From contig JACBWW010000020.1 of assembly GCA_020086605.1 (NCBI GenBank), positions 12,770,898-12,834,897 on the forward strand: a stretch of 64,000 bases of DNA. Direction: 5' to 3'. The stretch comes from Lanius collurio. Its lineage: Eukaryota; Chordata; Aves; Passeriformes; Laniidae. Made by a program: the position numbers and the translations under genes. The notes beneath the pieces are model-generated. The model searched no databases, was not told the origin of the DNA, and saw nothing but the letters and a program-made list of their open reading frames with translations. This document shows positions 11,185 to 47,174 of the stretch, one piece after another. Numbering within the stretch: position 1 is the first letter of the stretch; each line of letters opens with the position of its first letter.

Positions 11185-11190
11185 CCTCCT
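11185..11190. repeat. Target-site duplication, left copy (CCTCCT)
   Basis: CCTCCT directly abuts the left edge of the solo LTR and recurs at its right edge (11,835-11,840). A 6-bp duplication is what retroviral integrases of the class II (ERVK/alpha/beta) type usually make. The sequence is low in complexity, so the exact length is uncertain by one base. Confidence 0.75.
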
Positions 11191-11485
11191 TAAAGTTATT
11201 AAGCTGACGGGGGGTTCTCCCAGCCCGGGCTGGATGGGGTCAGAGGCTCAGACCCAAGAAGCCGTAGCAGACCTGGAGAGGTGATCCCGTGAGGAACCGT
11301 CTCCCAGGGGGTTGTGGCTTCTCTCAGCCATCGGCCAGCAGTGCCTGCAGAGATGCCTGGCTCAGCAGCCATCAGCTCTCAGTGATTCAGCAGTGATTTC
11401 AGCTCTGCTCTGCAAGGCAGAACCCCCCTTGGCCAGGCCCGGATAGAGAGAGGAGAGGACTCTCTGGTGGTTCCGCAGAAGCAGC

Positions 11486-11491
11486 TTTATT
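11486..11491 (-). terminator. LTR polyadenylation signal AATAAA
   Basis: AATAAA on the minus strand, about 70 bases downstream of the TATA-like box of the solo LTR. It is conserved in the sister copy at 39,413-39,418. Confidence 0.75.
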
Positions 11492-11554
11492 CTTCCATCT
11501 TCCACGAAGGGGTGACCAGAGACGAATCCTCCAATGACTCACGGCAAAGGGGTC

Positions 11555-11562
11555 TCTTTTAT
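11555..11562 (-). promoter_or_regulatory. LTR TATA-like box
   Basis: CATAAAAG on the minus strand, in the same context as the sister LTR. It marks the U3 core promoter. Present activity is unknown. Confidence 0.65.
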
Positions 11563-11834
11563 GGGGGTACAGAGGTGGGCGTACAAGGGTAAGAAACCAA
11601 TGGGTACTAGGGTATTTTACATACAGTTTCCTAGAGGATCTTGGATCTATCTTTTCTAACTAAAAAGGCTCTTTTTTTCCCCAAGAGGGGCCTGCAGGGG
11701 GATTGTGTGACCTCCTTATCTCCAGGCCTCCCTGCCAGGGCAGGGGCCTGTCAGACCGCACGTCTGGAGATGTTGCAGTTCCCTTTATCTAAACAAGGGC
11801 TTCCTGCCAAGACAGGGGTTTGTCAGACCCTACA

Positions 11835-11840
11835 CCTCCT
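11835..11840. repeat. Target-site duplication, right copy (CCTCCT)
   Basis: Right-hand partner of the duplication at 11,185-11,190. It lies immediately after the LTR's TGTAGGG end. Confidence 0.75.
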
Positions 11841-29197: not shown

Positions 29198-29492
29198 TGT
29201 GGAGATACCTCCCTGCCGAGAGGTCCTGGGGGAGGGGACCCTGGATGAACAGGGTTTGTCCCTGCTCCCTGCTCATATGTGCCTGGATGCCGTGTCCGAT
29301 TGGTTGGTGGGGGTTCCCAGGCTGGGGGAAAAGAGCTCGGGGTCCCATGGCTCAAAAAGGATCACCAGCAGGCCCCCATGCCATGCGGCCGGGAGAAATA
29401 AACATCTCTGAACCAACCCAATATCGTTCCATACTTCATTTCTACACATCTCACGGTACAATACTTGTGGAGAGAATTCCCTGTTAGCAACA
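29198..29492 (+). mobile_element. Solo LTR (family B), plus strand
   Basis: A 295-bp LTR running from TGTGGAGATACC to ...TTAGCAACA, with canonical TG...CA ends and perfect GCCAAC duplications on both sides. It is related to the 282-bp 3' LTR of the Y-box element at 43,697-43,978: both begin TGTGGAG(A/G)T(A/G)CCTC, share a 'gaccctg' and 'tgtccctg' U3 segment, 'gggtcccatg', 'ccatgcgg', 'aataaa...catctctgaa', and a U5 end of the type 'atacttgt...attccc'. They are clearly different subfamilies. The 6-bp duplication fits a class II (ERVK-like) integrase. There is no adjoining internal sequence. Confidence 0.9.
29397..29402 (+). terminator. LTR polyadenylation signal AATAAA
   Basis: AATAAA in the R region of the solo LTR, at the place where the related LTR at 43.7 kb also carries it (…GGAGGAATAAATCATCTCTGA). 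Confidence 0.7.
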
Positions 29493-39057: not shown

Positions 39058-39063
39058 AGGATA
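39058..39063. repeat. Target-site duplication, left copy (AGGATA)
   Basis: AGGATA immediately precedes the LTR start TGTAGGG and is found again right after the LTR at 39,707-39,712. Confidence 0.8.
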
Positions 39064-39069
39064 TGTAGG

Positions 39070-39173
39070 GTCTGACAAGCCCCTGTCCTGGCAGGAAGCC
39101 CTTGTTTAGATAAAGAGAACTGCAGCATCTCCAGACGTGGTGTCTGACAAGCCCCTGCCCTGGCAGGGAGGCC
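39070..39173 (+). repeat. U3 direct repeat pair in the LTR
   Basis: Unit 1 (39,070-39,100) and unit 2 (39,142-39,173) both read gtctgacaagcccctg(t/c) followed by cctggcagg. They lie 72 bases apart, start to start. The same pair is kept in the sister LTR at 11 kb. Repeated U3 segments often act as enhancers in retroviruses, so this is an inferred enhancer duplication. Confidence 0.6.
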
Positions 39174-39340
39174 TGGAGATAAGGAGGTCACACAATCCCC
39201 CTGCAGGCCCCTCTTGGGGAAACAACGAGCCTTTTGGGTTACGGCGAGAAAAGACAGACCCAAGATCCTCTAGGAAACTGTATGTAAAATACCCTAGTAC
39301 CCATTGGTTTCTTACCCCTGCACGCCCACCTCTGTACCCC

Positions 39341-39348
39341 CATAAAAG
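39341..39348 (+). promoter_or_regulatory. LTR TATA-like box CATAAAAG
   Basis: Lies about 65-70 bases upstream of AATAAA and downstream of an inverted CCAAT box, as in retroviral U3 promoters. Confidence 0.65.
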
Positions 39349-39412
39349 AGACCCCTCTGCCCTGAGTCGGCGGAGGATCCATCTCTGGTCACCCCTTTGC
39401 GGAAGATGGAAG

Positions 39413-39418
39413 AATAAA
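39413..39418 (+). terminator. LTR polyadenylation signal AATAAA
   Basis: Canonical AATAAA, conserved in the sister copy. Confidence 0.75.
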
Positions 39419-39706
39419 GCTGCTTCTGCGGAACCACCAGCCGAGTTCTCTCCTCTCTCTGTCTGGGCCTGGCCAGGGGAGTTTGCCTTGCAGAGCAGAG
39501 CTGAAATCACTGCTGAATCACTGAGAGCTGATGGCTGCTGAGCCAGGCACCTCTGCAGGCACCACTGGCCGAGGGCTGAGAGAAGCCACGACCCCCTGGG
39601 AGACGGTTCCTCACGGATCTGTGGGTCTGCTACGGCTTCTTGGGTCTGAGCCTCAGACCCCGACCAGCCTCGGCTAGGAGAACACCCCCCGAGCATTAAA
39701 AACTTT

Positions 39707-39712
39707 AGGATA
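39707..39712. repeat. Target-site duplication, right copy (AGGATA)
   Basis: Right-hand partner of the duplication at 39,058-39,063. Confidence 0.8.
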
Positions 39713-41072: not shown

Positions 41073-43696
41073 TGCCATATTTTAGCTTTTGGTACACATT
41101 TGTTTCAACTCTCTTTTGTTTTAAGTCAATGTACTAAACATTTTTTCTGCACAGGTTACAAATGAACAGCTGGTTAAATGATGTATTTAATTACCTTCAG
41201 TAGAATTGTCGTCTTTCCTATTATCTGGTCCCAAGTGACACTGGACATTTTAGTCTACTGAAGAGTTCCCTGTCTTTATCAAGCCAGACTCCAGGCACGC
41301 TTTTCAGCAGAGAATAATTAAAAAGGGAGGACTCCCTGCAAAGGAACCACAATTTATCAGTATAAAACCTACAGTAAATTAAAACAGTTTTCTCTGAGTC
41401 ATTTTAGCTATCAGAGGAGCTTCCACAACATTTTGTCATGCTAAGATACGTTCCTAATTAATCATTGCATGCACATGCACATGCCCCTGCACTTGATCAA
41501 ATAAATAGTTCTCGACAGCTACATCCTCATGCACCCTTTGCTCCCCAAACTTATAAGCCTTTCACAGGATGTTTAGACAGGAGGAAAGAGTGCAGGACAC
41601 CAGCACAACAGTGCTTACTAGAGTCTGGGGGCAATTTGATTCTGCTTTTCAAAATATTTCTCATATCCACTGCTTTGTACTACAGTTATGACAGAAAAGG
41701 AGAAAGCCCAGCAAAAAGAAGGAAATAAGACAGGGGTGACTGCAATTACAGGTAGTAAAAAAACCCAGGTGATAGTTGCATCCCATTCTTCTCCAGGGAA
41801 AGAAGGCAGTATGAAGAGTGACCCTGCCCTTTTGGAGACTTTGAACTTTCTGTAACTTTACAGGTGTTAGAGGAAATCTAGATGAGTAGAAACTCTTCCA
41901 GTCTCAGTCCCAATCAGGTTGTTTGGCCAGTGGAGATTTTCTTTAGAAGAGGAAGAGATACACTCAACATAGATATGAATAGGACAAGAGCTGTATGCTA
42001 CACCAATTTTGGATTATATTCTTTTGCAATGAATCCGCAGGAAATTCTTTGAGGCCTTGAACCACAAAGTACACTCTTTGTACTCTAAGTACACTCTAAA
42101 GACCTCTGCTCTTTAGTTGGGAAGTGCCTCTTCACTGATGCAGAATCAAACACTGGGTGTCTGGGCAGTCACCTTCCCCACCACCCTCCCCCCCCAAAAA
42201 AGCTGCTTTTCCTGCAATGTACAGCCTGAAACTGAGCCCTACTTGTGCCTGCAGTTCTCCCTTACATCTGCAGATCACAGTTGCACTGCAAAATTCAGGT
42301 CCACAATTGCTTCTTCTAAGGATAAGCTTCTGCTCAAGGGCCATAAACTCTGTGTGTTGAAATATTTCTGTGGCCTGATCTCTATCATCTAGCATATGAG
42401 AGATCAGCTGTACTATAACCCAATGGCACTAATTGTATGGTGAGCCTTTTCTGTTGATTTTGTCTTATTCTGTATCTGCAGATACAAAATTAATCTGCTT
42501 TGCACTATATGTGTCCTGATGGCTGCAGTGCTGGCTGGTATCTCGAGTGGGGACCTGGAGGCCAGGGACAACAGGCACAGGACAAGCATCCTGGGCAAGT
42601 GATGCAGATATGGAAAGTGTAGCCAGTAGTTACAGAATAAGAATAAAATCATGTGTAATTCAGTTTCTATACATAGCAGTGTGCAGGGACAATGGCTCTC
42701 TTTTTGGGACATACGTATCACCTGCAGAAATGAGCTACAGGGGATGGGGAGCACAGGTTGGGCAAGAGACAGGAGCATTGCCAGAGTTACAGTTCTGGTC
42801 CCTGCCATCTGGTATGCCTCCACTTGGTCTCAGTGCAAGAGTGCATCCATGCCCTTCCATCAGCATTGGTACCCTTACAGCAACTGGGTCCAAAGAGGCG
42901 CCTCCCCAAACTTCAGGAACTTAAGCAAGACCAAGCACCAGCTTGAGCAGTAAATTTCCAAAGCTCATCAAGAGCCCATCAGTTCACACAACTTTTAATA
43001 CAAACATTGCTCTGTAGAACTGAATCAAGCAAAGACATAATTTTCTCTCATTTGTGACTTCTAAAATGTCATGTAAGTTTGAAAAAGCTATTTTAAGTTC
43101 TGGCAAATTAAGAACACAATCAATCACAGAAAATCAGTCTGGAAGCTTTGTTATGACAAAATGCTTTTGGCTAATGAAAATATTTCAGCTAGAGTCTGAC
43201 TCCCTTAAACATTTTGAATACTTTAGATTAAAGTGAATTCTGAAGTAAAATAATGGTGAATCAAAGGTACTGAAAAACAAATCAAAGGGACAATTTAGTT
43301 TTTAACAAAGTACTTTATTAAACATTTCTATATTACACAAATGTTCTGCAAAATTTCTATGCGTTTGTGAATTGATTCATGGTTGCTACAGCAGCTTTCT
43401 CCACTTAAACAGAGCTTTTTTCTTCATTTTCATTCATTCAGTCACTGAGAGTTAAAACTACAGATAATGAACCAGGAAAGTCTGAGAACATGACTATTGA
43501 AAGATTGAAAAAATAGTTTTGGATAACCTTGTGTTTTCTTTCCTTTCTTCTACTTTGTTCCACAGGAAAAGGCTTTTGTGAGAGCAACTCTCAGCTGTTC
43601 TGGTTCAGGGGAGTTTGATGATTATTTTTGGTTTCAGTTTGCTAAGCATTAGGACTCCTCTCGTATTATTCTATTCTGAAATGATTTGAACAACGT
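41073..43696. other. Unique sequence, no gene seen
   Basis: Open frames on both strands around 42,117-42,950 overlap in several phases and carry no motif. The left flank of the LTR element (43,690-43,696) reads 'gaacaacgt'. No repeat family recognised apart from short simple repeats. Confidence 0.45.
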
Positions 43697-43787
43697 TGTA
43701 GTGAGGGGAATCCTTACAACAAGTATAAGACAGCAATGAACTTGGAAGGAAAGATGAAGTGATATTTTTGTAGATATTCAGAGATGA

Positions 43788-43793
43788 TTTATT
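43788..43793 (-). terminator. 3' LTR polyadenylation signal AATAAA
   Basis: AATAAA on the minus strand in the context GGAGGAATAAATCATCTCTG. It is the signal expected to end the element's transcript. Confidence 0.75.
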
Positions 43794-43847
43794 CCTCCAG
43801 CCGCATGGCTGGAGTTCCCAGGCAGACCCAGTCATGGGACCCTCTCT

Positions 43848-43855
43848 CTTTTATG
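43848..43855 (-). promoter_or_regulatory. 3' LTR TATA-like box
   Basis: CATAAAAG on the minus strand. Only the 3' LTR keeps it. The 5' copy is lost, so the element can no longer be transcribed from its own 5' end. Confidence 0.65.
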
Positions 43856-43978
43856 GGCCCCAGGCCCAACAAATCAGGAACAGGTATGGGGCACACGTGA
43901 CATGGGAGTGGGGACAGGGACAGACCCGTGCCCTGCAGGGTCCCTCCCCTGGGGATTTCAGGGAGAGGCACCTCCACA

Positions 43979-43998
43979 ATTCACCCTTTCTTATTAAA
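43979..43998 (-). other. Putative polypurine tract
   Basis: The minus strand reads TAAGAAAGGGTGAAT just before the LTR start. The A/G-rich core lies where plus-strand DNA synthesis would be primed. The tract is short and interrupted near the LTR, so the call is tentative. Confidence 0.45.
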
Positions 43999-44194
43999 TA
44001 AAATACCATTGGAAACAGTTGGATAAACAACAAAACAATTTCAAAGGCAAGGAAGCCACTATCTTGAGTCCCCAAATGTCCAAACAGATTCTCTTTGGAG
44101 CATCAGAAGGGAGACAGGACTTGAGCACACTCCAGATGGAAACTGAGGAAGGGATTTTCCTTTTTGTACCTGTCGGAATCTTAGAAAATGACAG

Positions 44195-44936
44195 TTAATT
44201 TCTTCCCTCCCTCCTTCTCATCCCCCCCATCGGCATTGCAAAGGGATTAATGGCAAATGGAAAAGTATGGTTTTGTGAGGAGAACCAGAAAGGGAGATTT
44301 GGGCTGGGCATATATGGGGGATAAAGGGGCATGGGATAAAAGGGGAAGGTGGGATAGGAGAAAGGATAGGGATTATGGGGATATTGTCCAGCATATCTAC
44401 TGCCTTGGACAGGGACACCCCCAGGGCCTGTAACACAGGAGGCCTGTGGGCCCTTCCATCCTTGCACAGTTTTAAATTCAACTCTTTCTCCTTCTTCTGA
44501 GCTTGGAACAACACCTTTGGGGTTCTTTTTTACAATAGCAGATTTATGGACAAAAATACTTTCTCCAGTATCCTTTTTCAACAAGAAACTGTAATTTTTC
44601 TTTACATTATACCATTTTACATTTCCAAAACCCTAGCTGCGATAACTTTTTATTTTTCCTAGTTCGTTTGTTCTTGCTTTCACTTTTGGTTTTTCTCGCT
44701 CTCTTGCCAGAGCTGCCGCAGCCGGGACCGCTGGGGCTGGTGCCACCAGCGCGTTCCTGTCGCGGGGTCTGGACTCCTCGGGATCGCATGTGGGGCCGCG
44801 CAGGTCCAGTCTGGCTGTGCTGCTGCACTCCACCACTGTCGGCTGCTCCGCCTTTGGCCACCTCTGCTCCACTGCTTGGCGCTGTGCTCGCTTCCCCACT
44901 GAAGCTCCGTGTGACTGCTCCATGCTTTCCGGGCAT
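44195..44936 (-). pseudogene. Captured Y-box (YBX-type) cold-shock domain protein, broken
   Basis: The minus-strand frame to the stop at 44,195 contains a cold-shock domain. Visible are V-K-W-Y-N-V, then DTGESIFVHKSAI (RNP2-like, about 44,535-44,560), a G-E-x-V-E-F strand, and the Y-box hallmark VTGPGGVPVQGSRYA (about 44,390-44,433). YBX proteins use this domain to bind single-stranded RNA and DNA. An ATG at 44,936 opens an Ala/Pro/Gly/Arg-rich N-terminal part ending in a basic cluster, as YBX proteins have before the domain. The RNP1 glycine is replaced (NYSFL instead of NGYGF). Two single-base frameshifts break the frame, near 44,647-44,652 (A-run) and near 44,625. The C-terminal tail is not the basic/acidic YBX tail but a Pro/Tyr/Phe-rich stretch (about 44,230-44,390) of unknown origin. 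There are no introns. It lies between retroviral ends on the same strand. I am confident of the domain family, not of which YBX gene was the parent. Confidence 0.83.
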
Positions 44937-45253
44937 TCGTGCAGCTGCACGGCCACGCCCTGTGAGGCCGTGTTCGCGTGTGCGTGGCTTCGTATCGCCG
45001 GCACTGCCGCTGCTGCTGCTGCTGTCGGCTGTGTGGCCGTTGGCTAGTGTGGTTCCCCTCTCACCCCCACGCCGCTCCGGCTCTGCTCAGCATGGCTCAC
45101 TGTGGTTGCCATAGCGACTGCCACAATCACCTCTGCCTTTCTCGGCTCAGGGCTCGGCGCAGGGCGGCCATCACCAGGTCGCGCCTCTGCTGCTGCCACT
45201 CTCATTGCCGCCCTCATCGCTGTCCTTGCCGCTTGCACCTCTGCTCTCATGGC
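44937..45253 (-). other. GC-rich Ala/Arg-coding low-complexity segment within the element
   Basis: GC- and GCN-rich sequence with (GCA/GCT)n runs, for example around 45,005-45,030. On the minus strand a 69-codon frame from an ATG (45,250 to 45,044) is Ala/Arg-rich. Whether it was a separate frame, a 5' UTR of the captured mRNA, or part of its N-terminal coding region in another phase cannot be decided here. Its composition resembles the GC-rich 5' ends of YBX transcripts and differs from the AT-rich first frame of the element. Confidence 0.45.
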
Positions 45254-45930
45254 TCACTTTTTGCATTTTTCAGCAGCTATTTGTACTATCTGTCCTTCTT
45301 TATTCACTGTAAGGATACCTCGGAGACCCCTAGGAATGCACTCTCGCATCCAGCGTCTCCGTTGTCGCTCTCTCGCCCGCTGTCGCTCGGGAGTGCACTC
45401 CGATACAGGGATGGGGTCTGCTCTATGGTTTGTGCTTTTAGGGGGGCTGGGCGCCTCCACCGCAGGCACCTCAGCCACAGGCACCTCTGTGTTACTGGGA
45501 CTGAGTATGTGCTTTATGAGAGCATCTTCAATTGCAAAAGATGCTAGGATCAATTTTACTACCATTCTACTTCTTGACTGGATCATCATCAACTCATCGA
45601 TTTCTTTACAAAAATTGTCCCCTCTAGTCACAGGAAAACCAGCATCAAAAATTAGGTCCGAGTGACATAAAAGAAATTTTTGAAAAGCCAGTTAAAGAAG
45701 TGTTCTAAATGTCCTGGGTCCAGTTTTGCATTTTGTTGCACTAGAATTTCTTTCACTTCCAAGTACATTTTTCTCTGTGGCTCAGATAGCCACAACTCCT
45801 CTGATTTCTCCATCTGGTCAGAAAGTACAGCCAAACCCAAGACAATAAGAAAGTTCAATTGCTCGCAACTCACATCGGTGTACTCTGGACCTTTAGAAAT
45901 TGTTTTCAGGGATCGAATGTCCACACAGCT
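45254..45930 (-). pseudogene. Unrecognised reading frame in gag position of the LTR element, frameshifted
   Basis: The first frame begins just inside the 5' LTR/PBS without a visible ATG and runs to a stop at 45,652. It is rich in Leu and Glu and looks helical. A second phase stays open from about 45,665 to a stop at 45,254, so one frameshift around 45,655-45,670 splits what was probably one protein of over 200 residues. The C-terminal half has a Pro/Val-rich linker followed by a strongly basic cluster (R-rich, around 45,340-45,390). I see no zinc knuckle (CCHC), no major-homology-region motif and no late-domain motif that I would trust. Position and basic region suggest a Gag matrix-like or RNA-binding role. 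That is inference, and the family is not recognised. Confidence 0.5.
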
Positions 45931-45936
45931 CCACCA
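45919..45936 (-). other. Primer-binding site-like sequence (tRNA-Ala-like)
   Basis: On the minus strand TGGTGGAGCTGTGTGGAC begins six bases after the 5' LTR end. Its first eight bases complement the ...CTCCACCA 3' end typical of tRNA-Ala. After that the match is poor, either from decay or because another tRNA was used. Its position right after the LTR is correct for a PBS. Confidence 0.5.
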
Positions 45937-45941
45937 TTTGT

Positions 45942-46052
45942 TGTAATGGGGAATCCTTACAACAAGTATGAGACAGCGATGAACAATGGAAGGAAAGACG
46001 AAGCGATATTTCTGTAGATGTTCAGGAATGATTTATTCCTCCAGCCACATGG
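45942..46052 (-). mobile_element. Partial 5' LTR (R-U5 part only)
   Basis: On the minus strand it begins ...CCATGTGGCTGGAGGAATAAATCATTCC and ends ...GGATTCCCCATTACA. It matches the last ~110 bases of the 3' LTR. Upstream similarity stops abruptly at 46,052, so U3, the TATA box and the start of R are missing. AATAAA is kept (46,032-46,037). The cause is a deletion or a truncated insertion. Confidence 0.82.
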
Positions 46053-47174
46053 GAACAAGTCAAAGTGATTTTCATAACACTGAATTTGGGACTGAAATTA
46101 TGTGACTTGTAATAATGTCAACCTTTTCTTAAACTGAAGGTGTCTTTCAGAACCATAATGGAAACAAGCAGTATCTCAAAAGAATGGATCAATGGATCCC
46201 TATGGGCATGATTCTGATTTCACAGATAACAATGGAAATCAGAGGCAGGAAAAACATTGGTGATATTAGTGTTAAATAACTGTAAGTAAAAGCAAAACTA
46301 ATTTCTATATTTTCAGATTAACAAATATGCACATTAAGAATTTTCTTCCTTTAGGAGTACTATCTTACTTTAGCAGTAGTCATCTTACTTTAAATGTAGC
46401 AAGACTGATTACAGAGGAAGGTCAGGAGCTGGAATTTTACAGTTATTTTTGTATTTTATGCAAATTTTCTTTCTAGCAGTTGCTGTTTGGTATCTACTTG
46501 ATTTGTTAAAAGCAAACAGAGAAAAATAATTAAATACCTAATAATGATTCAGAAGTTGAATAAAAACAAAATACAAATTTGCTAAAGCTAAACAGGAGGG
46601 GGGGGAAAGCATATTAATATGTGCACAAAACATCAAGATGGAAAGAGCCGTTCTAAGCCATTACATTGCCCTCATAAAGAATCTCTGAACAGGCACACTT
46701 TACTGTTCATCTGGAGGGAAAAACCCCTGAACAGAGAAATTACAACTAAAAGTGTACCATTTTAAATACAGCAGGTGCATGCACAAAGTATGCAAAAATG
46801 TTCTATCTGCTGGGCCTGATGCCATTATTTCTTGTCTTCTAGGAACCAGTCCTTTCATTGAATCAGGATGACTGTGGGTTTTGTATACCTTCATTGATCA
46901 AATAAATTGAATAGAAACCACTCCACTAGAAGGTAAACATCATTTGAGTTAAGGGGTGTGCTAGCAAAAAGTAGGAGAAATCATCCCTACAACACAGTTC
47001 CAATTTTCTATCTTTTCCAGCAATGTTTCCCCAAATCAATATTATTAGCACATATTAATGAAGTGATTTTTTAAACAGTCTTATATCACATGATTTTTTT
47101 CAGAAATTGCTTAATATGACCTTGGCTTGGCTTGATTTGGTTTATTTCTGCTTCTGTGGGATTTTTGGAGGGTT

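What the first reader, a model, noticed from the sequence alone, without database searches (positions are those of the whole stretch)
43697..46052. Endogenous retroviral element that captured a Y-box cold-shock gene
LTR, PBS-like site, gag-position frame, an intronless YBX-type cold-shock domain, purine tract and LTR all lie on one strand within 2.4 kb, with no pol. Seen directly: the LTR pair, the CSD signature (FVHKSAI, VTGPGGVPVQGS) and the shared orientation. Known: retroviruses can transduce host mRNAs, and Y-box proteins bind RNA. Inferred: the element acquired a Y-box mRNA, perhaps to help package or protect its own RNA or to drive cell growth. I do not know of a described Y-box-transducing avian ERV.
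Basis: partly seen in the sequence, partly recalled or inferred. Interest (0 to 1): 0.88.

Follow-up and report, generated by a model that had tools for sequence, protein, structure and literature searches.

The report
Retroelement family carrying captured Y-box domain
A short virus-like jumping element, present in many copies across this genome, carries an intron-free copy of a cellular RNA-binding (Y-box cold-shock) domain joined to its own protein, and likely uses it to handle and spread its own RNA.

Summary
The window element (minus strand, 43694-46052) is one decayed copy of a multi-copy LTR family. Of 36 measurable copies, 24 have exact, all-different 6-bp target duplications; cross-paired flanks gave 0 of 1,260. 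A cold-shock profile search of the genome had 1,214 candidates; all 150 scored passed the cut-off. The domain is Y-box type and intronless, while the host's own YBX1 has introns inside it, so a spliced Y-box-type mRNA was captured. In 13 places it shares one uninterrupted 504-509 aa frame with an orphan gag-position domain. The copies (about 2.1-2.8 kb) leave no room for pol. The cold-shock domain evolves under constraint (dN/dS 0.40 in frame, 0.97 and 1.08 out of frame). The 5' cassette comes in two versions on the same 3' half. Best reading: a helper-dependent retroelement whose captured domain does nucleocapsid-like work; RNA binding, helper and packaging are inferred. The helper search never got an answer. 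No listed paper describes such an element.

The parts
45939..46052 (-). 5' LTR remnant (last ~114 bp of an LTR of about 285-300 bp; its 5' part is missing)
   Evidence: fuller copies continue ~170 bp further
45927..45936 (-). PBS-like site TGGTGGAG.. two bases after the LTR end
   Evidence: same 8 bases in 32 of 40 copies; tRNA identity (Ala?) recalled, not tested
45652..45813 (-). orphan gag-position N-terminal domain, first part (starts MEKSEELW)
   Evidence: type A version
45254..45631 (-). rest of the N-terminal domain and start of the linker, in another frame in this decayed copy
44660..45253 (-). linker region; Gly/Arg/Ala/Pro-rich and basic in the open frames of other copies
   Evidence: composition measured in three other copies
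44419..44637 (-). Y-box-type cold-shock domain, intronless, frame-broken in this copy
44195..44418 (-). Pro/Phe/Tyr-rich C-terminal tail and stop
43979..43992 (-). purine tract next to the 3' LTR
43694..43978 (-). 3' LTR (TGTGGAGG...CTACAACG)

Best explanation
This is one decayed copy of a large family of short LTR retroelements that carry, between their LTRs and in intact copies in one open frame with a gag-position domain, an intron-free Y-box cold-shock domain, which likely binds the element's own RNA so that a helper retrovirus would package and copy it. Shown: LTRs, 6-bp duplications, many copies, intronless Y-box-type domain, one-frame fusion in 13 places, constraint on the domain's protein sequence, two 5' cassettes on one 3' half. 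Inferred: (1) an ancestral element took up a spliced Y-box mRNA by template switching and joined it downstream of its first gag-like domain; (2) the protein (N-domain, basic linker, cold-shock domain, aromatic/proline tail) coats the element RNA as a nucleocapsid substitute, through the conserved aromatic/His RNA-binding residues; (3) the N-domain targets that complex to assembly sites of a helper provirus, whose Gag, reverse transcriptase and integrase act in trans.
For: Copies and mobility: 40 candidates scored: the window, 13 others aligned over nearly the whole element, 26 over its 3' 51-64%; same order of parts in the 40 loci, with the exceptions named in the full report; a direct LTR-like pair in 61 of 70 loci; 24 of 36 exact distinct 6-bp duplications, 30 of 36 at 5/6 or better; control 0 and 9 of 1,260. 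Abundance: (1,214 and 1,243 first-look candidates; 150 of 150 scored matched in each). Of the 30 cold-shock loci fetched, 28 have other element parts beside the domain. Y-box origin: zebrafish YB-1 E 2.3e-31; YBX2 E 1.2e-34 with an older copy. Spliced-mRNA origin: (host YBX1 is interrupted after residues 37 and 67 of the domain query; the elements are continuous there). One-frame fusion: (13 places with the same uninterrupted 504-509 aa frame in both searches; 15 places of 499-509 aa among 150). Constraint: (cold-shock domain 0.40 in frame against 0.97/1.08 out of frame, 63 copies; copies chosen by DNA likeness only 0.43 against 0.85/0.92, 36 copies; N-domain 0.38 against 0.69/1.04, 19 copies). 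RNA-contact residues (roles recalled): W 59/63, F 63/63, F 63/63, H 62/63. Net charge of linker +19 to +27 and of cold-shock domain +7 to +8, no CX2CX4HX4C knuckle, in the three frames measured. [quoted passage not shown] YB-1 depletion lowers HIV-1 virion output through viral RNA metabolism (PMC6040738 abstract).
Against: No helper was found: the searches for LTR-sharing and capsid-carrying proviruses did not complete. The N-terminal domain matches no known Gag matrix, so 'gag' rests on position alone. The tail shows no clear constraint (0.74 against 0.71/0.98). One noncoding control frame reached 0.52, so the ratios are noisy, and pairwise counts re-use shared branches. L041-L070 were picked by cold-shock score, which favours conserved domains. 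135 of the 150 best N-domain matches lack an uninterrupted 499-509 aa frame. Two of 30 fetched cold-shock loci (L049, L056) show the domain without other recognised element parts. Y-box domains bind RNA with little specificity (recalled), so self-RNA preference would need cis-preference. No expression data.
Confidence: 0.6

Rival explanations
1. The captured domain works on the host rather than on the element RNA: a Y-box mimic that changes masking, translation or small-RNA silencing of transcripts in germ cells, and so lets the element (and its helper) be expressed.
For: Y-box proteins are general mRNA-masking factors (recalled); constraint on the domain fits this as well as RNA packaging; the domain has drifted a good deal from the host's.
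Against: The fusion to a gag-position domain in one frame and the basic linker are better explained by an assembly or RNA-coating role. No expression data either way.
Confidence: 0.2
2. Passenger: the captured Y-box segment does nothing and spread because the LTRs and leader are good templates for a helper; the open frame is a relic.
For: Many copies are decayed: of 40 copies chosen by DNA likeness 4 have no ungapped domain and 10 of the other 36 have a stop in it; 135 of 150 N-domain matches lack the full frame. Non-autonomous LTR elements without any gene spread well (recalled).
Against: In-frame dN/dS well below both other frames for cold-shock and N-domain; 13 long open fusions; RNA-contact residues kept.
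Confidence: 0.15
3. Host-used gene family: some copies have become host genes and host selection keeps the frame open.
For: Several copies keep about 505 aa open.
Against: Where the LTR pair could be read, long open frames sit in young copies: seven loci of that subfamily have LTR pairs 0.017-0.069 apart, three of them in 504-509 aa frames, which explains openness without host use.
Confidence: 0.04
4. Independent YBX processed pseudogene that happens to lie inside or beside an ERV.
For: The domain is intronless.
Against: Same junctions in the mapped copies at different sites; no run of 8 or more A or T around the window element.
Confidence: 0.01

Closest known systems
Crocodilian ERVs that captured KIT-ligand (CrocERV29) and nectin3 (CrocERV31) mRNAs (PMC4299795; abstract and passages seen)
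   Same: ERV lineages that took up a host mRNA, carry it in several copies, with purifying selection reported on the captured frame
   Different: KIT-ligand was added without loss of an ERV domain and nectin3 stands in place of env, both extracellular-type proteins; here an RNA-binding domain is fused to a gag-position domain in an element too short for pol
Transducing (oncogene-carrying) retroviruses such as the acute avian leukosis/sarcoma viruses (recalled)
   Same: Intronless host gene between LTRs, often fused to gag, replication-defective and helper-dependent
   Different: Those arise singly and are short-lived; this is a germline family with several subfamilies
Retroviral use of host YB-1: MMTV (PMC4486188, passages) and HIV-1 (PMC6040738, abstract and outline)
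   Same: Y-box protein joined to retroviral RNA and Gag function
   Different: There the host protein is borrowed in trans; here the domain is encoded by the element
Non-autonomous LTR elements (e.g. ART-CH of chicken, TRIM/LARD; recalled)
   Same: Short, paired LTRs, no pol, helper-dependent by inference
   Different: Those are not known to me to carry a captured RNA-binding gene

Membership tests
LTR retroelement / ERV | Paired LTRs with TG...CA ends | tested here: met
   61 of 70 loci with a direct LTR-like pair; TG/CA ends in most of the 36 copies
LTR retroelement / ERV | Fixed-length target-site duplication | tested here: met
   24 of 36 exact 6-bp, all distinct; control 0 of 1,260. Window copy itself not testable (5' LTR truncated)
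LTR retroelement / ERV | PBS complementary to a tRNA next to the 5' LTR | tested here: inconclusive
   TGGTGGAG in place in 32 of 40 copies; resemblance to tRNA-Ala recalled only
LTR retroelement / ERV | Polypurine tract next to the 3' LTR | tested here: met
   AAGAAAGGG in 36 of 40 copies
Class II (ERVK/beta-like) endogenous retrovirus | 6-bp duplication | tested here: met
   ERV2 = 6 bp as stated in PMC6523648 (passage)
Class II (ERVK/beta-like) endogenous retrovirus | gag-pro-pol with class II reverse transcriptase | tested here: not met
   LTR-to-LTR spans of 2.08-2.80 kb in L001-L040 and 2.30-2.33 kb in seven young loci leave no room for pol; no retroviral Pfam match in the four window frames scanned. 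Not filed as a class II ERV, only as class-II-like in its duplications
Class II (ERVK/beta-like) endogenous retrovirus | Gag matrix homology of the N-terminal domain | tested here: not met
   No Gag family in Pfam (19 members scanned) and no significant PDB profile match (best E 0.21)
Non-autonomous LTR element with a helper | Autonomous helper sharing LTR/leader | not tested
   Searches with the LTR, Gag_p24 (PF00607) and RT (PF00078) stayed unanswered (calls listed in Tried and rejected)
Retroelement with captured host mRNA | Captured segment lacks the introns of the host gene | tested here: met
   Host YBX1 domain split at residues 37/38 and 67/68 of the query; continuous in the elements
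Retroelement with captured host mRNA | Same junctions in copies at different sites | tested here: met
YBX processed pseudogene | Own poly(A) tail and target duplication around the YBX segment alone | tested here: not met
   No run of 8 or more A/T in 43001-46800; duplications lie outside the LTRs
Y-box protein | Y-box-type cold-shock domain with RNA-contact W/F/F/H | tested here: met
   (residue roles recalled)
Y-box protein | C-terminal alternating basic and acidic islands | tested here: not met
   Tail is 64 aa, 19-23% Pro, 19-23% aromatic in three frames. The protein is filed as carrying a Y-box domain, not as a Y-box protein

The most novel reading that the evidence does not exclude
A retroelement lineage has replaced the retroviral nucleocapsid by a captured host cold-shock domain: its only protein (orphan N-domain, basic linker, Y-box cold-shock domain, aromatic tail; no capsid, no zinc knuckle, no enzymes) coats and delivers its own RNA to helper particles, and this design has persisted through several subfamilies, swapped its 5' module, and reached a thousand or more candidate copies.
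Probability: 0.45. Interest if true: 0.92.

Novelty: new variant of a known kind. Interest (0 to 1): 0.82.

Why it matters
Gene capture by retroviruses is usually seen as a rare, short-lived accident that makes oncogenic or env-replacing variants. Here a captured RNA-binding domain was kept under constraint while the element multiplied and diversified in a germline. If the nucleocapsid-substitute reading is right, it shows that a retroelement's RNA handling can be rebuilt from a host mRNA-packaging protein, turns the known trans dependence of retroviruses on YB-1 into an encoded function, and gives a natural series of about 1,200 candidate loci in which the change can be followed. It also warns genome annotators that open 'Y-box-like' genes in such genomes may be transposable elements.

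Tried and rejected
Rejected: lone processed pseudogene. Rejected as over-reach: naming the donor paralogue. The older copy L041 scores best with YBX2 (123 against 118 and 116 bits) and shares VKGSRYAPNR, but at the columns that separate YBX1 from YBX2 most elements agree with YBX1 at 6, 44 and 74 and with YBX2 at 85 and 88, and no bird YBX2 or YBX3 sequence was at hand. A tree of 49 stop-free element domains with the two YBX domains splits elements from YBX at 100/100, but two outgroup rows and 90 columns cannot prove a single capture.

Led nowhere: protein database search (one hit of 45% identity among 5 candidates); viral contig search with the N-domain alignment (none); profile search of the N-domain against PDB and Pfam (best E 0.21 and 0.054, not significant). 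IQ-TREE's codon model gave a tree but no omega in the lines read, so only Nei-Gojobori counts are used. Grouping pairs by dS gave falling ratios, but the grouping itself produces part of such a trend, so it is not used as evidence. Open frames alone were not taken as evidence, since moderately young copies would often stay open by chance. Rows dropped before counts: of 70 loci, 7 cold-shock domains (2 gapped, 5 partial), 19 tails and 51 N-domains had no ungapped full match to the L061 type, 34 of 70 loci lacked two complete readable LTR ends, and for L024 and L030, which have three LTRs, the pair was chosen by hand.

Not answered: searches for proviruses sharing the LTR, for Gag_p24 (PF00607) and for RT (PF00078, asked once).
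Full report
WHAT IS IN THE WINDOW. On the minus strand, in element order: 5' LTR remnant 45939-46052, PBS-like TGGTGGAG at 45936, a gag-position frame (45813 down to about 45254, in two frames in this copy), a GC-rich linker (45253-44660), a Y-box-type cold-shock domain (44637-44419), a tail ending at 44195, a purine tract (43992-43979) and the 3' LTR 43978-43694. PF00313 matches at E 9.8e-15. The window copy is broken in the N-terminal domain and in the cold-shock domain, and its 5' LTR lacks about 170 bp, so its own target duplication cannot be read. The LTR remnants differ by K2P 0.108 over 112 columns; with an assumed (recalled) 2-3e-9 changes per site and year this is roughly 18-27 million years.

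IT IS A FAMILY. The window lies in a 1.097-Gb assembly. Of the 40 candidates scored, the window and 13 others align over nearly the whole element (13 at 86-87%), and 26 over its 3' 51-64% (LTR, tail, cold-shock domain, linker) at 85-88%. Part-by-part mapping of these 40 loci shows one order of parts, with exceptions: L028 and L039 show no 5' LTR, in L032 the upstream LTR is inverted, L024 and L030 have an extra LTR, L039 and L040 lack or break part of the linker. A direct LTR-like pair was found in 61 of 70 loci (the nine misses are L028, L032, L039, L046, L049, L050, L056, L068, L069; the pairing in L042 is doubtful). In 36 loci with both LTR ends readable, 24 have identical 6-bp flanks, all different from each other, and 30 match in at least 5 of 6; flanks paired between copies match 6/6 in 0 and at least 5/6 in 9 of 1,260. 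The elements therefore moved as units. A genome scan with PF00313 had 1,214 first-look candidates, of which 150 were scored and 150 passed the cut-off; the N-domain gave 1,243 candidates and 150 of 150 scored matches. The candidates are not confirmed copies. Of the 30 loci fetched, 28 have other element parts next to the domain; L049 and L056 show the domain alone.

THE PROTEIN. Many copies hold long open frames. In 13 places the cold-shock search and the N-domain search report the same uninterrupted frame of 504-509 aa; alone lists 15 of 499-509 aa among its 150 matches. In the three such frames measured the layout is N-domain 112 aa, linker 239-243 aa (net charge +19 to +27, rich in Gly, Arg, Ala, Pro), cold-shock domain 90 aa (+7 to +8), tail 64 aa (19-23% Pro, 19-23% aromatic), with no zinc knuckle of the CX2CX4HX4C form. 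The N-domain has two versions, types A and B, 33-38% identical in protein, with no Gag family in Pfam and no significant PDB match. Calling it 'gag' rests on its place as first frame after the leader.

TWO 5' MODULES. In four A/B pairs compared, the LTR and 12-40 bases of leader match at 84-91%, then about 700 bases do not match, then linker to 3' LTR matches at 85-87%. On the cold-shock tree types A and B are mixed: the labels need 9 and 10 changes against shuffled means of 10.8 and 16.5 (few columns, weak support). The seven young loci have a B-type N-domain and an LTR only 73-76% like the window's where aligned. I read this as module exchange by template switching (inference).

ORIGIN OF THE DOMAIN. 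The best PDB matches are Y-box proteins: YB-1 E 2.3e-31 and YBX2 2.2e-30 for a young copy; YBX2 1.2e-34 and YB-1 3.5e-33 for an older copy. The host YBX1 gene was located by its C-terminal exons on contig C64. In 3,251 bases of it three exact pieces of the domain lie apart: residues 26-37, 38-67 and 68 onward of the YB-1 query; residues 1-25 were not found in that stretch. The elements run through both points without a break, so the source was a spliced mRNA. Forty-nine of 49 stop-free element domains share Pro at column 52 where YBX has Arg, and 47-48 share Gln 66, Pro 71 and Gln 72, which fits one capture and later diversification. Which Y-box gene was the donor stays open.

SELECTION. Nei-Gojobori ratios: cold-shock domain 0.40 in frame against 0.97 and 1.08 in the other two frames (63 copies); 0.43 against 0.85 and 0.92 in the 36 copies chosen by overall DNA likeness to the window; N-domain 0.38 against 0.69 and 1.04 (19 copies, not chosen by this domain); tail 0.74 against 0.71 and 0.98 (51 copies, no clear signal); controls from the region before the 3' LTR 0.85, 0.52, 0.96 (57 copies) and from the LTR 0.74, 0.93, 0.67 (48 copies). 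Grouped by dS the cold-shock ratio is 0.52, 0.30, 0.33, 0.35, 0.26 from closest to deepest pairs, the N-domain 0.53 to 0.19, the tail 0.90 to 0.39 unevenly; the grouping itself makes part of this trend. Limits: pairwise counts share branches; L041-L070 were selected by cold-shock score. RNA-contact residues (roles recalled from YB-1) are kept in 59, 63, 63 and 62 of 63 ungapped domains.

HOW IT MAY WORK. Elements of about 2.1-2.8 kb leave no room for pol, so reverse transcriptase and integrase must come from elsewhere (inference). [quoted passage not shown] YB-1 depletion lowers HIV-1 virion production through viral RNA metabolism (PMC6040738 abstract). An element that carries its own Y-box domain on a basic, gag-position protein could coat and deliver its RNA to helper particles. 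RNA binding, helper and packaging are untested. A host-directed role or a passenger role remain possible, at lower odds.

WHAT IS KNOWN. Crocodilian ERVs captured KIT-ligand and nectin3 mRNAs, with purifying selection reported (PMC4299795, abstract and passages). The term 'cold shock' occurs in neither of two papers on songbird LTR elements (PMC6523648; PMC11009239), and 'YBX' not in the second; it was not sought in the first. Library searches listed no title or abstract start that describes a Y-box or cold-shock-carrying ERV; most lists were capped (10-20 shown of up to 2,966), the library holds only openly licensed PubMed Central papers, and repeat libraries such as Repbase and Dfam were not available, so this is not proof of absence.

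VERDICT. Observation confirmed, interpretation supported and extended. Membership: a non-autonomous LTR retroelement with captured host mRNA (helper not tested); class-II-like by its 6-bp duplications, but not filed as a class II ERV because gag-pol was tested and not seen.

Noticed in passing
window 11187-11840 and 39058-39710: Two dispersed repeat copies in opposite orientation, four blocks of 82-94% complementarity, about 650 bp in all; a second repeat family, not identified.
   Followed up: no
window 29380-29412: 34-column match, 88% like part of the element's LTR in inverted orientation (E 8.5e-4); possibly a tiny LTR remnant or chance.
   Followed up: no
L030:4084-4369 and L024:1148-1442 (turned to the element's sense): L030: a solo LTR beyond a complete copy, with its own 6-bp duplication CCCTGC. 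L024: an extra LTR between the 5' LTR and the linker. Both point to nested insertion or LTR recombination.
   Followed up: partly
G000:C9:29183383-29183565: Weak match (49%, E 9e-5) to the YBX1 C-terminal half besides the YBX1 locus on C64; may be YBX3 or YBX2.
   Followed up: no
L043, L044, L046, L047, L050, L051, L063: Older subfamily, one group on the tree, with a cold-shock domain closer to YBX (for example GFITRWDTREDVFVHQTAI in L043) and a different Pro-rich tail; would show intermediate steps of the capture.
   Followed up: partly
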